A stretch of 58,659 nt of DNA from Dactylosporangium siamense (GTDB taxonomy: Bacteria; Actinomycetota; Actinomycetes; Mycobacteriales; Micromonosporaceae), in contig NZ_BONQ01000158.1 in assembly GCF_016862795.1 (NCBI RefSeq), forward strand, positions 1-58,659, written 5' to 3'. The notes beneath the pieces are model-generated. The model did no database searches. It was not told where the DNA came from and saw only the letters and a program-made list of their open reading frames with translations. Below are positions 28,885 through 31,914 of the stretch, in pieces (position 1 is the first letter of the stretch; every line of letters begins with the position of its first letter). The position numbers and the translations under genes were made by a program.

Positions 28885-29652
28885 TCAGCGCGTCGGCGCC
28901 GGCACCGCCCGGTCGAGGTACCGGTCCAGCAGCAGGTCCAGGTAGCCCGCGTCGCCGACCGGGGTCACCGTGCCGAAGTCCGGCACGAGCGTCCGCAGCC
29001 GCTCCAGGGACACCTCGGTCCGCGAGAACGGCCCCGACAGGTACACCCGGTCGGGTGCGACGCCGAGCCGGGCCGCCACCCCGTCGACGATCTCCTCGAC
29101 CGGCAGCGGCCGGCCGGAGGCGACGTTGACGACCACGTCGCCGGCGTCCGACAGGAGCAGGCCGTCGATGGCGTGCATCAGGTCGCGGGCGTCCAGCAGG
29201 TCGCGGTGCGCCCCGCGGTACACGGTGACGGTGCCGCTGCCGACCTGCCGCACGATCGCCGGCAGCAGCTGATGCGGCCGCTGGTGCGGGCCGACCACAT
29301 GGCTGAGCCGCAGCACGACATGGCGCACCCCGGACGCCCGCACACAGGCCTCCAGGGCGAGCTTGTGCCGTCCGTACGCCGACGGCGGGAACAGCGGGCC
29401 GTCCTCCCTCGCCGGGACGTCGGTGTGGCCGTACATCGCGAACGACGCGGTCGAGAAGTACAGCAGCGTCAGGTCCTGCGCCGCGCACTTGTGCAGGGCG
29501 GCGTAGAGCGACTCGGCCTCCCGGTCGAACTCGGCCGGGTCCGTGACGGACGTGCTGGACACACCCGCCGCCAGCGCCGTCACCTCCGGGAACCGGTCGC
29601 CGAACGCCGTGGCGAGGTTCTTCGCCAGGAACCCGTTGCCGATGATCTGCAT
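28885..29652 (-). CDS. NAD-dependent epimerase/dehydratase family protein, probable sugar reductase
   Basis: 255 residues from ATG 29652, chosen because GGGAGG lies five bases upstream and the Rossmann start MQIIGNGFLAKNL begins there. The glycine motif is an atypical GNGFLA. The catalytic YGRHK (YxxxK) follows STASFAMYGHTDV. It is a short extended-SDR enzyme; the length and context suit a second NDP-hexose 4- or 3-ketoreductase. It is the last gene of the mqnA-mqnC-reductase operon, 63 bp after mqnC. This arrangement puts a probable sugar gene and two menaquinone genes on one transcript. The exact substrate is not determinable. Confidence 0.82.
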   Translation of the reverse strand: MQIIGNGFLAKNLATAFGDRFPEVTALAAGVSSTSVTDPAEFDREAESLYAALHKCAAQDLTLLYFSTASFAMYGHTDVPAREDGPLFPPSAYGRHKLALEACVRASGVRHVVLRLSHVVGPHQRPHQLLPAIVRQVGSGTVTVYRGAHRDLLDARDLMHAIDGLLLSDAGDVVVNVASGRPLPVEEIVDGVAARLGVAPDRVYLSGPFSRTEVSLERLRTLVPDFGTVTPVGDAGYLDLLLDRYLDRAVPAPTR

Positions 29653-29715
29653 GTCATCCTCCCGACCGGGTCGGCGCCGGCGGGTCGCCGGCGCCGCGAC
29701 AGCCACCCGCGCGGC

Positions 29716-30921
29716 TCATCCGACCGGTGTCACCTTCAACAGCCGCTGGGGCGCCACCGCGCCGATACCGCCGCCCTCGACCGCGGTCGAGGACAGGTGC
29801 GATACCACCCGGTCGTCGGCGGGGTCGTCGGCCGGGTCCTCGAGCACCCGCAGGTGCTCGTACGTGGTGCTGCGCTGGGCGGGCACCCGGCCCGACGCGC
29901 GGATCAGGTGGATCATCTCCAGCAGGTTGGAGCGGTGCTTCGCACCGGCGGAGGAGACCACGTTCTCCTCCAGCATGACGGAGCCGAGGTCGTCGGCGCC
30001 GTAGTGCAGGGACAGCTGGCCGATCTCCTTGCCGGTGGTCAGCCACGAGCCCTGGATGTGCGCGACGTTGTCGAAGAACAGCCGGGCGATCGCGATCATC
30101 CGCAGGTACTCCAGCGACGTCGCCTGCGTCTGGCCCTTCAGCTTGTTGTTCTCCGGCTGGTACGTGTACGGGATGAACGCCCGGAACCCGCCGGTGCGGT
30201 CCTGCACGTCGCGGACCATCCGCAGGTGCTCGATGCGCTCCTCGTTGGTCTCGCCGGTGCCCATGAGCATCGTGCAGGTCGACTCGACGCCCAGGCCGTG
30301 CGCGATCTCCATGATCTCCAGCCAGCGTTCGCCGCTCTCCTTCAGCGGGGCGATCGCCGTGCGAGCCCGCTCGGGCAGCAGCTCCGCGCCGGCACCGGCG
30401 AACGAGTCGAGACCGGCGGCCTTGATCCGCTGGATCGCCTCCTCCGGGGTCACCCCGGACACCTTCGCCATGTGCTGCACCTCGGACGCGCCGAGGGAGT
30501 GGATGACCAGCGACGGGTAGGCGTCCTTGATGGCCTTGAACATGCCCTCGTAGTACTCGACGCCGTAGTCCGGGTGGTGACCGCCCTGGAACATGATCTG
30601 CGTCCCGCCGAGCTCGACGGTCTCCGCGCAGCGGCGCAGGATGTCGGTGAGGTCGCGCTCCCACGTCTTGTCGCTCTTCGGCGCGGCGTAGAAGGCGCAG
30701 AACTTGCACGCCGTGACGCAGACGTTGGTGTAGTTGATGTTGCGTTCGATGATGTACGTCGCGATGTGCTCGGCGCCGGCGTACCGGCGGCGGCGGACCG
30801 TGTCAGCCGCGGCGCCGAGGGCGTGCAGCGGCGCCGAACGGTACAGGTCCAGCGCCTCCTCGGGAGTGATGCGTTCGCCTGCGGCGGCTCGGTCGAGCAC
30901 CGCGCTGGCAGATCGGGGCAT
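29716..30921 (-). CDS. mqnC: Cyclic dehypoxanthine futalosine synthase MqnC (radical SAM)
   Basis: 401 residues. The radical SAM cluster ligands are Cys68, Cys72 and Cys75 in CVTACKFCAFY, preceded by ERNINYTNV as in MqnC. Later segments fit the family: GGTQIMFQGGHHPDYG, AFIPYTYQPEN, GSVMLEENVVSSAG. MqnC cyclises dehypoxanthine futalosine in the futalosine route to menaquinone. The stretch usually reading like MFGHVET is LMGTGET here. ATG 30921 has AAAGG seven bases upstream, and the gene follows mqnA by 51 bp. The partner genes mqnE, mqnB and mqnD are not in the window. It could be the housekeeping copy, a resistance copy, or a repurposed radical enzyme. Confidence 0.92.
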   Translation of the reverse strand: MPRSASAVLDRAAAGERITPEEALDLYRSAPLHALGAAADTVRRRRYAGAEHIATYIIERNINYTNVCVTACKFCAFYAAPKSDKTWERDLTDILRRCAETVELGGTQIMFQGGHHPDYGVEYYEGMFKAIKDAYPSLVIHSLGASEVQHMAKVSGVTPEEAIQRIKAAGLDSFAGAGAELLPERARTAIAPLKESGERWLEIMEIAHGLGVESTCTMLMGTGETNEERIEHLRMVRDVQDRTGGFRAFIPYTYQPENNKLKGQTQATSLEYLRMIAIARLFFDNVAHIQGSWLTTGKEIGQLSLHYGADDLGSVMLEENVVSSAGAKHRSNLLEMIHLIRASGRVPAQRSTTYEHLRVLEDPADDPADDRVVSHLSSTAVEGGGIGAVAPQRLLKVTPVG

Positions 30922-30972
30922 GTCAGAGCCTTTCGGGGAGTGACGATGTCCGTGTGCCGGGGCCTGCCCCGG

Positions 30973-31914
30973 TCACGGCGTTGACAGCAACCGCACCTCG
31001 ACGTCCGGCGGGAACCCGGCGTCCTGGCCGTCAGCACAGCCGCCGACCCGGCGGGCGAACTCGGCGATCCCGGCCAGCTGCCGGTCGCCGAGGCTGAAGT
31101 CGAGCGCCGTCATGTAGTACCGGCGCAGGATCGCCGCGTCGAACGGCTCCCAGCGGGCCGCCTGCTCGGAGACGGCGTCGACCTCGCGCAGCGACAGGTC
31201 CCGCGACGCCAGGAACGCCCGGTGCACCCGATGCACGGTCTCCGGCTCGCGGGCCACGAAGTCGCGGCGGGCGGCGAACACCGCGAAGACGAACGGCAGA
31301 CCCGTCCATTCGCGCCACATCTCGCCGAGGTCGTAGACGTGCAGACCCAGCCGCTTCGCATCCGAGAGCGCGGCCCGCAGCGCCACGTCGCCGATGACCA
31401 CGGCCGCTGGGGCGTCGCGCAGCATGACGTCGAGGTCGGGCGGGGCCGCGAAGTAGCTCGGCTGGACCCCGACGAGGTCGCTGAGCAGCAGCGCCGCGAG
31501 CCGGATCGACGTGCGGCTGGTCGAGCCGAGCGCCACCGGCGCCCCGTCGAGCTGGTCGAGCGGCACCTTGCTCACGATGAGGCACGACATGACCGGGCCG
31601 TCGCTGCCCACGGCGATGTCGGGCAGCGCGACGAGCTGGTCGGCGTGCTTCAGGAACTCCATCAGGCTGATCGGCCCGATGTCCAGGTCCCCGGAGGTCA
31701 GCGCGTCGCTCAGCCCGTCGGGGCTGTCGCGGCGCAGGTCGAGGTCGAGCAGGCTGCCGGTGCGGGCAAGCCCCCAGAACAGCGGCACGCAGTTGAGGAA
31801 CTCGATGTGCCCGACGCGCGGCCGCACCGGGCGGCGCCATCCGGCCGGCGCGATGCCGTCGGTGAACGGCATCGCCGGGTTCGGCTCCGTGAGGGTGCCG
31901 AGTGGATCAGGCAT
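30973..31914 (-). CDS. mqnA: Chorismate dehydratase MqnA
   Basis: 313 residues from ATG 31914, with AGGAG five bases upstream; longer in-frame starts lack this site. It has the periplasmic-binding-like fold of Mqn[58 protein letters not shown] and [13 protein letters not shown]. It closely follows the pattern of Streptomyces MqnA. MqnA dehydrates chorismate to 3-[(1-carboxyvinyl)oxy]benzoate, the first futalosine-pathway step. It heads the operon with mqnC and a sugar reductase, and its promoter region holds the operator-like palindrome also found before the sugar operon. A role in cluster self-resistance or in supplying an aromatic precursor is inference; a plain housekeeping role remains possible. 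Confidence 0.95.

What the first reader, a model, noticed from the sequence alone, without database searches (positions are those of the whole stretch)
28885..31914. Futalosine-pathway genes mqnA and mqnC embedded in a PKS/NRPS cluster
mqnA (chorismate dehydratase) and mqnC (radical SAM cyclase) sit in one operon with a probable sugar reductase, between deoxysugar genes and glycosyltransferases. mqnE, mqnB and mqnD are absent, so this is not a complete menaquinone locus. Three readings: spare copies giving self-resistance to a product that inhibits the futalosine pathway; supply of a chorismate-derived aromatic building block; or housekeeping genes caught inside the cluster. The first two would be new biology.
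Basis: partly seen in the sequence, partly recalled or inferred. Interest (0 to 1): 0.78.

Follow-up and report, generated by a model that had tools for sequence, protein, structure and literature searches.

The report
Second vitamin-K pathway feeding antibiotic cluster
In this soil bacterium a spare copy of the pathway that normally makes vitamin K2 sits inside a large antibiotic-type gene cluster, most likely to supply a naphthalene building block for a sugar-decorated natural product, a device already reported for a Streptomyces macrolide.

Summary
In detail: window 28885-31914 (minus strand) encodes MqnA, MqnC and a short SDR, kept together in three Dactylosporangium relatives. "mqnE, mqnB, mqnD absent" is true only of the window: a second copy of each lies on contig C157, and the complete chromosomes of D. 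fulvum and D. vinaceum show that C157 and the window (C158) belong to one cluster. All five futalosine genes are thus duplicated inside a hybrid PKS/NRPS/glycosyltransferase cluster; separate housekeeping copies lie on C87 and C83. In trees the cluster MqnA, MqnC and MqnE do not group with the genus's housekeeping copies. Best reading: the set makes 1,4-dihydroxy-6-naphthoate as an aromatic building block, activated by an EhpF-like ligase or a FAAL and possibly extended by an ACP-KS-AT-ACP-aminotransferase protein. Self-resistance is unlikely (whole pathway duplicated; eight Nocardia genomes carry an MqnA of the same tree group in a PKS locus with no other futalosine enzyme detected). Trapped housekeeping genes are ruled out. 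The concept is known: gonM1-M4 of the PM100117/118 cluster, where deleting gonM4 lowers the naphthoquinone compounds. New here: a different assembly line, mqnB inside the cluster, an EhpF-like ligase and a beta-aminoacyl-type module.

The parts
30973..31914 (-). mqnA, chorismate dehydratase (cluster copy)
   Evidence: PF02621 230 bits; SCO4506/7ahr E 1e-118; 60.6% identical to the housekeeping copy on C87
29716..30921 (-). mqnC, cyclic dehypoxanthinyl futalosine synthase (cluster copy); start 30900 or 30921
   Evidence: TIGR03699 462 bits, cut-off 428; CVTACKFC motif; 68% identical to the C87 copy
28885..29652 (-). short SDR, sugar-epimerase-like, role unknown
   Evidence: PF01370; weak PDB matches to nucleotide-sugar epimerases, best E 2.5e-8; next to mqnC in 3 of 3 named relatives
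26359..27420 (+). SDR, possible NDP-sugar ketoreductase
   Evidence: PF01370 120 bits
27413..28723 (+). PLP-dependent NDP-hexose 3-dehydratase-like (RfbH)
   Evidence: NF011936 650 bits, cut-off 423
32079..33299 (+). glycosyltransferase 1
   Evidence: EryCIII-like domains
33419..34606 (-). glycosyltransferase 2 (macrolide type)
   Evidence: TIGR01426 319 bits, cut-off 260
34603..35589 (-). discrete FabD-like acyltransferase B
   Evidence: weak PF00698; GLSLG motif
35612..36553 (-). discrete FabD-like acyltransferase A
   Evidence: FabD 3im8 E 6e-17; GISLG motif
36587..37840 (-). glycosyltransferase 3
   Evidence: TIGR04516 501 bits, cut-off 440
37853..38617 (-). type II thioesterase
   Evidence: PF00975 165 bits, on the longer frame 37853-39205
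38614..58659 (-). type I PKS, cut by the right end of the contig; ends in a TE domain
3..7808 (-). type I PKS, cut by the left end; its C-terminal part is at C157:56945-59086
8110..8322 (-). MbtH-like protein
   Evidence: PF03621
8352..9095 (-). thioesterase
   Evidence: PF00975
9100..17067 (-). NRPS 1 (C-A-PCP-C-A-PCP-C)
17246..24805 (+). NRPS 2 (C-A-PCP-C-A-PCP-C)
24807..26177 (+). MFS transporter
   Evidence: PF07690

Best explanation
mqnA and mqnC are part of a complete second futalosine gene set (mqnA, B, C, D, E plus a ferredoxin) dedicated to a glycosylated PKS/NRPS gene cluster. Inferred route: MqnA turns chorismate into 3-[(1-carboxyvinyl)oxy]benzoate; MqnE adds the SAM-derived adenosyl part; MqnB removes adenine; MqnC cyclises; MqnD releases 1,4-dihydroxy-6-naphthoate. 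The naphthoate is not prenylated towards menaquinone but activated by the EhpF-like ligase and/or the FAAL, loaded on a carrier protein (perhaps with the discrete AT-like proteins), and built into the product as a naphthohydroquinone/naphthoquinone unit, possibly first extended and transaminated by the ACP-KS-AT-ACP-aminotransferase protein. Shown by sequence: gene identities, completeness, order in relatives, duplication, and ancestry apart from the genus's housekeeping copies. Inferred: enzyme activities, which ligase takes the naphthoate, and where it ends up.
For: All five enzymes and a ferredoxin in one cluster split over C157 and C158. Separate housekeeping set. Same arrangement in D. 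fulvum, D. vinaceum and, with an inversion, D. aurantiacum, each with its own housekeeping mqnA, C, D and E. Cluster MqnA present in 4 of 7 genomes of the genus, housekeeping MqnA in 7 of 7. mqnB in one apparent operon with FAAL and PKS-aminotransferase; mqnE with ferredoxin and an EhpF homologue. UbiA, UbiD, UbiX and UbiE homologues lie with the housekeeping set on C87; none was found among the cluster genes scanned. Radical-SAM and MqnA/MqnD motifs kept. Genetic precedent: deleting gonM4 lowers PM100117/118 and gives compounds without naphthoquinone (PMC4763440).
Against: No product is known for this cluster. C157 and C158 are not physically joined in this assembly and share no exact end overlap. 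The EhpF-like/AT-like pair also lies beside PKS genes in 6 of 6 other genomes examined that have no second mqnA/mqnD set, so it need not act on the naphthoate. No counterpart of gonMT (methyltransferase), gonS1/S2 (KASIII) or gonCP (P450) was found in the stretch scanned.
Confidence: 0.85

Rival explanations
1. Self-resistance: the product inhibits a futalosine enzyme and the cluster carries insensitive spare copies so that menaquinone synthesis continues.
For: Spare copies exist, and they are diverged from the housekeeping ones (56-78% identity).
Against: All five enzymes are duplicated, where one insensitive target would do. Eight of 8 Nocardia genomes have an MqnA of the same tree group in a PKS locus and no other futalosine enzyme detected, so nothing there needs protection. 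The gon precedent is biosynthetic (PMC4763440).
Confidence: 0.05
2. Only an early intermediate is used: MqnA supplies 3-[(1-carboxyvinyl)oxy]benzoate or another partial product as the building block, and the later genes serve another purpose.
For: Nocardia PKS loci have MqnA alone.
Against: Here mqnB, C, D and E are all kept in the cluster in 4 genomes, which is not expected if only MqnA were needed.
Confidence: 0.05
3. The second set makes extra menaquinone for respiration during the production phase, not a building block.
For: The same intermediates feed menaquinone.
Against: No UbiA/UbiD/UbiX/UbiE homologue was found among the cluster genes scanned, and the set is tied in apparent operons to acid ligases and a PKS.
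Confidence: 0.04
4. Housekeeping menaquinone genes caught inside the cluster.
For: None found.
Against: Separate housekeeping MqnA in 7 of 7 genomes of the genus; in the trees the cluster copies branch apart from them.
Confidence: 0.01

Closest known systems
gon cluster of Streptomyces caniferus (PM100117/PM100118; PMC4763440)
   Same: Second mqnA, mqnC, mqnE, mqnD and a 101-aa ferredoxin inside a large type I PKS cluster with deoxysugar 3-dehydratase, glycosyltransferases and LuxR-type regulators; housekeeping mqn genes elsewhere in the genome; the authors explain the extra genes as precursor supply.
   Different: gon is a PKS without NRPS genes in its table; its MqnB is outside the cluster; it has a methyltransferase (gonMT), two KASIII (gonS1, gonS2), a ligase-DH-KR-ACP protein (gonSL) and a P450. 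Here there are two NRPS genes, mqnB in the cluster, an EhpF-like ligase, a separate FAAL, a PKS-aminotransferase protein and two FabD-like proteins.
cluster 6 of Streptomyces sp. NEAU-S7GS2 (PMC6746918, passages read)
   Same: Reported with mqnA, mqnC and mqnD in a PM100117-like PKS cluster, used for 1,4-dihydroxy-6-naphthoic acid.
   Different: 88% of genes similar to gon; futalosine hydrolase far from the cluster; product not isolated according to the passages seen.
EhpF of D-alanylgriseoluteic acid biosynthesis (PDB 3hgu, 3l2k)
   Same: The C157 ligase matches it over almost its whole length (E 1e-48); EhpF acts on an aromatic carboxylic acid (recalled).
   Different: Different pathway; substrate here not tested.
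Mycosubtilin/iturin-type loading with FAAL and class III aminotransferase (recalled)
   Same: Same order of functions: FAAL, carrier, KS, AT, carrier, aminotransferase.
   Different: FAAL is a separate protein, in one apparent operon with mqnB; acyl substrate unknown.
Housekeeping futalosine pathway (SCO4506, SCO4494, SCO4550, SCO4326/4327)
   Same: Same five enzyme families.
   Different: In a biosynthetic cluster, without the prenylation and decarboxylation genes.

Membership tests
MqnA chorismate dehydratase | PF02621 match and closer to known MqnA than to MqnD | tested here: met
   230 bits; SCO4506/chorismate dehydratase chains 395-399 bits against 30 bits for the MqnD TTHA1568
MqnA chorismate dehydratase | dehydrates chorismate | not testable with these tools
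   needs an assay; the serine that differs (S to A) in chain 7an8 is kept as serine in GPVMSC
MqnC cyclic dehypoxanthinyl futalosine synthase | equivalog model over cut-off and CX3CX2C motif | tested here: met
   TIGR03699 462 against 428 bits; CVTACKFC
Complete futalosine route to 1,4-dihydroxy-6-naphthoate | mqnA, B, C, D and E all present in the cluster | tested here: met
   A and C in the window; B, E and D on C157; same stretch in three relatives
gon-type naphthoquinone macrolide cluster | second mqnA, C, E, D set with ferredoxin in a PKS/glycosyltransferase cluster | tested here: met
   against the table read
gon-type naphthoquinone macrolide cluster | gonMT, gonS1/S2 (KASIII), gonCP (P450) counterparts | tested here: not met
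   none among the genes scanned between mqnB and the window's right end; the cluster's right border is unsettled, so genes further right are not excluded
gon-type naphthoquinone macrolide cluster | naphthoquinone in the product | not testable with these tools
   no product known for this cluster
Target-duplication self-resistance | spare copy of the enzyme the product inhibits | tested here: inconclusive
   spare copies exist, but of all five enzymes; product and target unknown

The most novel reading that the evidence does not exclude
The duplicated vitamin-K pathway makes a new polyketide/peptide building block: 1,4-dihydroxy-6-naphthoate is extended by one malonate and transaminated to a 3-amino-3-(1,4-dihydroxynaphth-6-yl)propionyl starter, which then enters a glycosylated PKS/NRPS assembly line.
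Probability: 0.35. Interest if true: 0.68.

Novelty: new variant of a known kind. Interest (0 to 1): 0.52.

Why it matters
It shows that drawing aromatic units from the futalosine pathway is a recurrent device in actinobacterial secondary metabolism, not confined to PM100117-like Streptomyces clusters, and it offers a MqnA tree group that could serve as a genome-mining hook for quinone-bearing products. Four Dactylosporangium genomes carry this cluster, two of them as complete chromosomes of NRRL strains, so the prediction can be tested directly.

Tried and rejected
Housekeeping genes caught in the cluster: rejected. Recent duplication of the genome's own set: rejected, since cluster MqnC is 68% identical to the housekeeping copy but 80-86% to full-length Streptomyces copies, and the trees agree. 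EhpF-like gene as a specific marker of naphthoate clusters: rejected, as 6 of 6 other genomes examined have it by PKS genes and hold at most two PF02621 genes, none shown beside it. An exact DNA overlap between C157 and C158: not found. Reading NRPS substrates from A-domain motifs: the A4 pattern was found in only two of four A domains, so no amino acids are claimed. Not used: structure prediction, fold search, RNA tools, viral or plasmid collections.

Literature: PMC4763440 read in abstract, sections 6 and 15 whole, section 7 part 1 of 2, and passages; PMC6746918, PMC7081687 and PMC10683483 in passages only. Searches listed no further paper that I recognised as describing futalosine genes in a PKS or NRPS cluster, nor one on this Dactylosporangium cluster; for those only listings and abstract starts were seen, lists were cut at 15-25 rows, and most subscription journals are outside that library.

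Rows left out: the MqnA tree used 32 of the 44 loci plus 9 other rows, 41 in all; three repeat copies from the longer stretches were dropped. The MqnC tree kept rows of 300 aa or more (24), the MqnE tree 200 aa or more (20). The trees are quick searches with SH-aLRT only; L064 is a long branch. No trees were made for MqnB and MqnD. Gene calls come from a home-made codon-usage script, not a standard gene finder.
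Full report
The observation. Window 30973-31914 (minus) matches PF02621 at 230 bits and the S. coelicolor chorismate dehydratase SCO4506 at E 1e-118; no NCBIfam model matched it, nor the housekeeping MqnA. Window 29716-30921 (minus) passes the MqnC equivalog cut-off (462 against 428 bits) and has the CVTACKFC motif. Window 28885-29652 (minus) is a short SDR with only weak PDB matches to nucleotide-sugar epimerases. Around them are a 3-dehydratase, a second SDR, three glycosyltransferases, two FabD-like proteins, two thioesterases, an MFS transporter, two NRPS genes with MbtH, and PKS genes running off both contig ends.

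The rest of the pathway. A search of the window's own assembly (12.7 Mb, 296 contigs) gave four PF02621 genes and, apart from the F420 gene on C24, two MqnC and two MqnE genes. One set is on C87 (mqnE, mqnA, mqnC, with UbiA, UbiD, UbiX-type and UbiE homologues) and C83 (mqnB, mqnD). The other is the window pair plus C157: futalosine hydrolase MqnB at 33736-34482, MqnE at 44025-45191 and MqnD at 46582-47454. Between the two sets identity is 61% (A), 57% (B), 68% (C), 56% (D) and 78% (E). C157 also has, beside them, an HAD hydrolase, a FAAL, an ACP-KS-AT-ACP-aminotransferase protein (the second ACP was found by Pfam, not by my own model), a phosphopantetheinyl transferase, a ferredoxin, an EhpF-like ligase, DUF6069 and LuxR-type regulators.

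One cluster. The PKS gene cut by the window's left end continues at the right end of C157: the two pieces cover residues 1-2542 and 2551-3281 of one D. fulvum protein; the contig ends share no exact overlap. In D. fulvum the genes run from mqnB at 6162676 to mqnC at 6219799 and on through PKS genes to 6277468; D. vinaceum has the same order but for one extra 262-aa gene. D. aurantiacum has it on one contig with one block, NRPS2 to the SDR, inverted; the window genome has only the GT1-mqnA-mqnC-SDR piece inverted relative to D. fulvum. These three relatives also hold separate housekeeping mqnA, mqnC, mqnE and mqnD.

Distribution and ancestry. Of 7 genomes of the genus, 7 have the housekeeping MqnA (59-63% identity to the window protein) and 4, the window's own included, have the cluster MqnA (82-100%). 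I call the genus Dactylosporangium because three of these genomes match, in coordinates, the named records. Of the 44 loci, by neighbours, 3 are this cluster, 1 is an S. sioyaensis locus with related genes, 7 are Streptomyces cassettes with mqnE and ferredoxin beside mqnA, 8 are Nocardia PKS loci, and 25 are the rest, of which 24 have a UbiE homologue or the 67-aa gene that goes with housekeeping mqnA in Streptomyces (its identity as a cold-shock gene is recalled). In a quick MqnA tree of 41 rows the cluster, cassette, S. sioyaensis and Nocardia copies form one side of a branch (SH-aLRT 97), and the Dactylosporangium housekeeping copies a group of their own (100). In the MqnC and MqnE trees the cluster copies lie with Streptomyces sequences and apart from the genus's housekeeping copies (100 in both); in MqnC they are not shown to join the cassettes rather than the Streptomyces housekeeping copies, and the S. 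olivoreticuli cassette falls among housekeeping ones.

Mechanism. By established knowledge of the futalosine pathway the gene set suffices for chorismate to 1,4-dihydroxy-6-naphthoate. No UbiA, UbiD, UbiX or UbiE homologue was found among the cluster genes scanned. mqnB is in one apparent operon with the FAAL and the PKS-aminotransferase gene, and mqnE with the ferredoxin and the EhpF-like ligase, whose closest solved relative is EhpF (E 1e-48; its role on phenazine carboxylates is recalled). This points to activation and use of an aromatic acid. Against a naphthoate-specific role, the EhpF-like gene was found in 3 of 397 order genomes and 5 of 394 class genomes, own genome counted in both; in the 6 others it lies within about 3 kb of an AT-like gene and by PKS genes, and those genomes hold no second mqnA/mqnD set (two PF02621 genes in five, none in one).

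Why not self-resistance. Five enzymes are duplicated. In 8 of 8 Nocardia genomes searched, the only PF02621 gene is the MqnA in the PKS locus, and the only MqnC-profile match at E 1e-60 or better is below the family cut-off and lies in a frame of 867-1234 aa, which I read as the F420 enzyme CofGH. So no futalosine pathway was found there that would need protection.

Against what is known. PM100117/118 of S. caniferus (PMC4763440, read in part) uses gonM1-M4 with gonF2; deleting gonM4 lowers production and gives derivatives without naphthoquinone, and the authors explain the duplication as precursor supply and coordinated regulation. PMC6746918 (passages) reports a similar cluster in another Streptomyces. 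That is the same idea. Differences here: NRPS/PKS backbone, mqnB in the cluster (mqnB is also beside the cassette in Streptomyces loci L031, L032 and L051), EhpF-like ligase, separate FAAL with an aminotransferase protein, and no GonMT, KASIII or P450 counterpart in the stretch scanned. The right border was not settled: in D. fulvum NRPS-type and glycosyltransferase-like genes continue past 6277538, and a protein whose N-terminus looks like KASIII (read by eye) lies at 6315404.

Verdict. A real feature with a well-supported role by analogy: new variant of a known kind. The possible beta-aryl-beta-amino acid starter is the most novel part and rests on domain order and operon context alone.

Noticed in passing
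L034, L038, L059, L060, L061, L062, L063, L064 (Nocardia): An MqnA homologue (62-70% identical to the window's) lies by PKS genes; in L060 it is followed by an AMP-ligase/carrier protein and PKS. It is the only PF02621 gene in each of the 8 genomes and no MqnC/MqnE over cut-off was found: perhaps a lone chorismate dehydratase making a PKS starter acid.
   Followed up: partly
C157:47495-47881 (L014:7495-7881); L025, L026, L027, L031, L032, L051: A DUF6069 protein recurs beside mqn cassettes in Dactylosporangium and in six Streptomyces-type loci (38-47% identity); role unknown.
   Followed up: no
L110 (G286), L113 (G189), L138 (G520), L139 (G657), L140 (G611), L141 (G650): An EhpF-like ligase and a discrete AT-like protein lie together beside type I PKS genes without a second mqn set: perhaps a general module for attaching an aromatic or other acid.
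   Followed up: partly
window 28885-33299 against L069/L070 (D. fulvum) and L082-L084 (D. aurantiacum): The GT1-mqnA-mqnC-SDR piece is inverted in the window relative to D. fulvum and D. vinaceum, and a larger block is inverted in D. aurantiacum; real rearrangement or, in drafts, assembly.
   Followed up: no
window 34603-36553: Two FabD-like proteins, 46% identical to each other, keep GxSxG but not the usual His of GHSxG (GLSLG, GISLG).
   Followed up: no
L052 (S. olivoreticuli): A mqnE-ferredoxin-mqnA-mqnC cassette whose MqnC and MqnE group with housekeeping copies while its MqnA groups, at SH-aLRT 88, with the Nocardia PKS copies: a possible mosaic.
   Followed up: no
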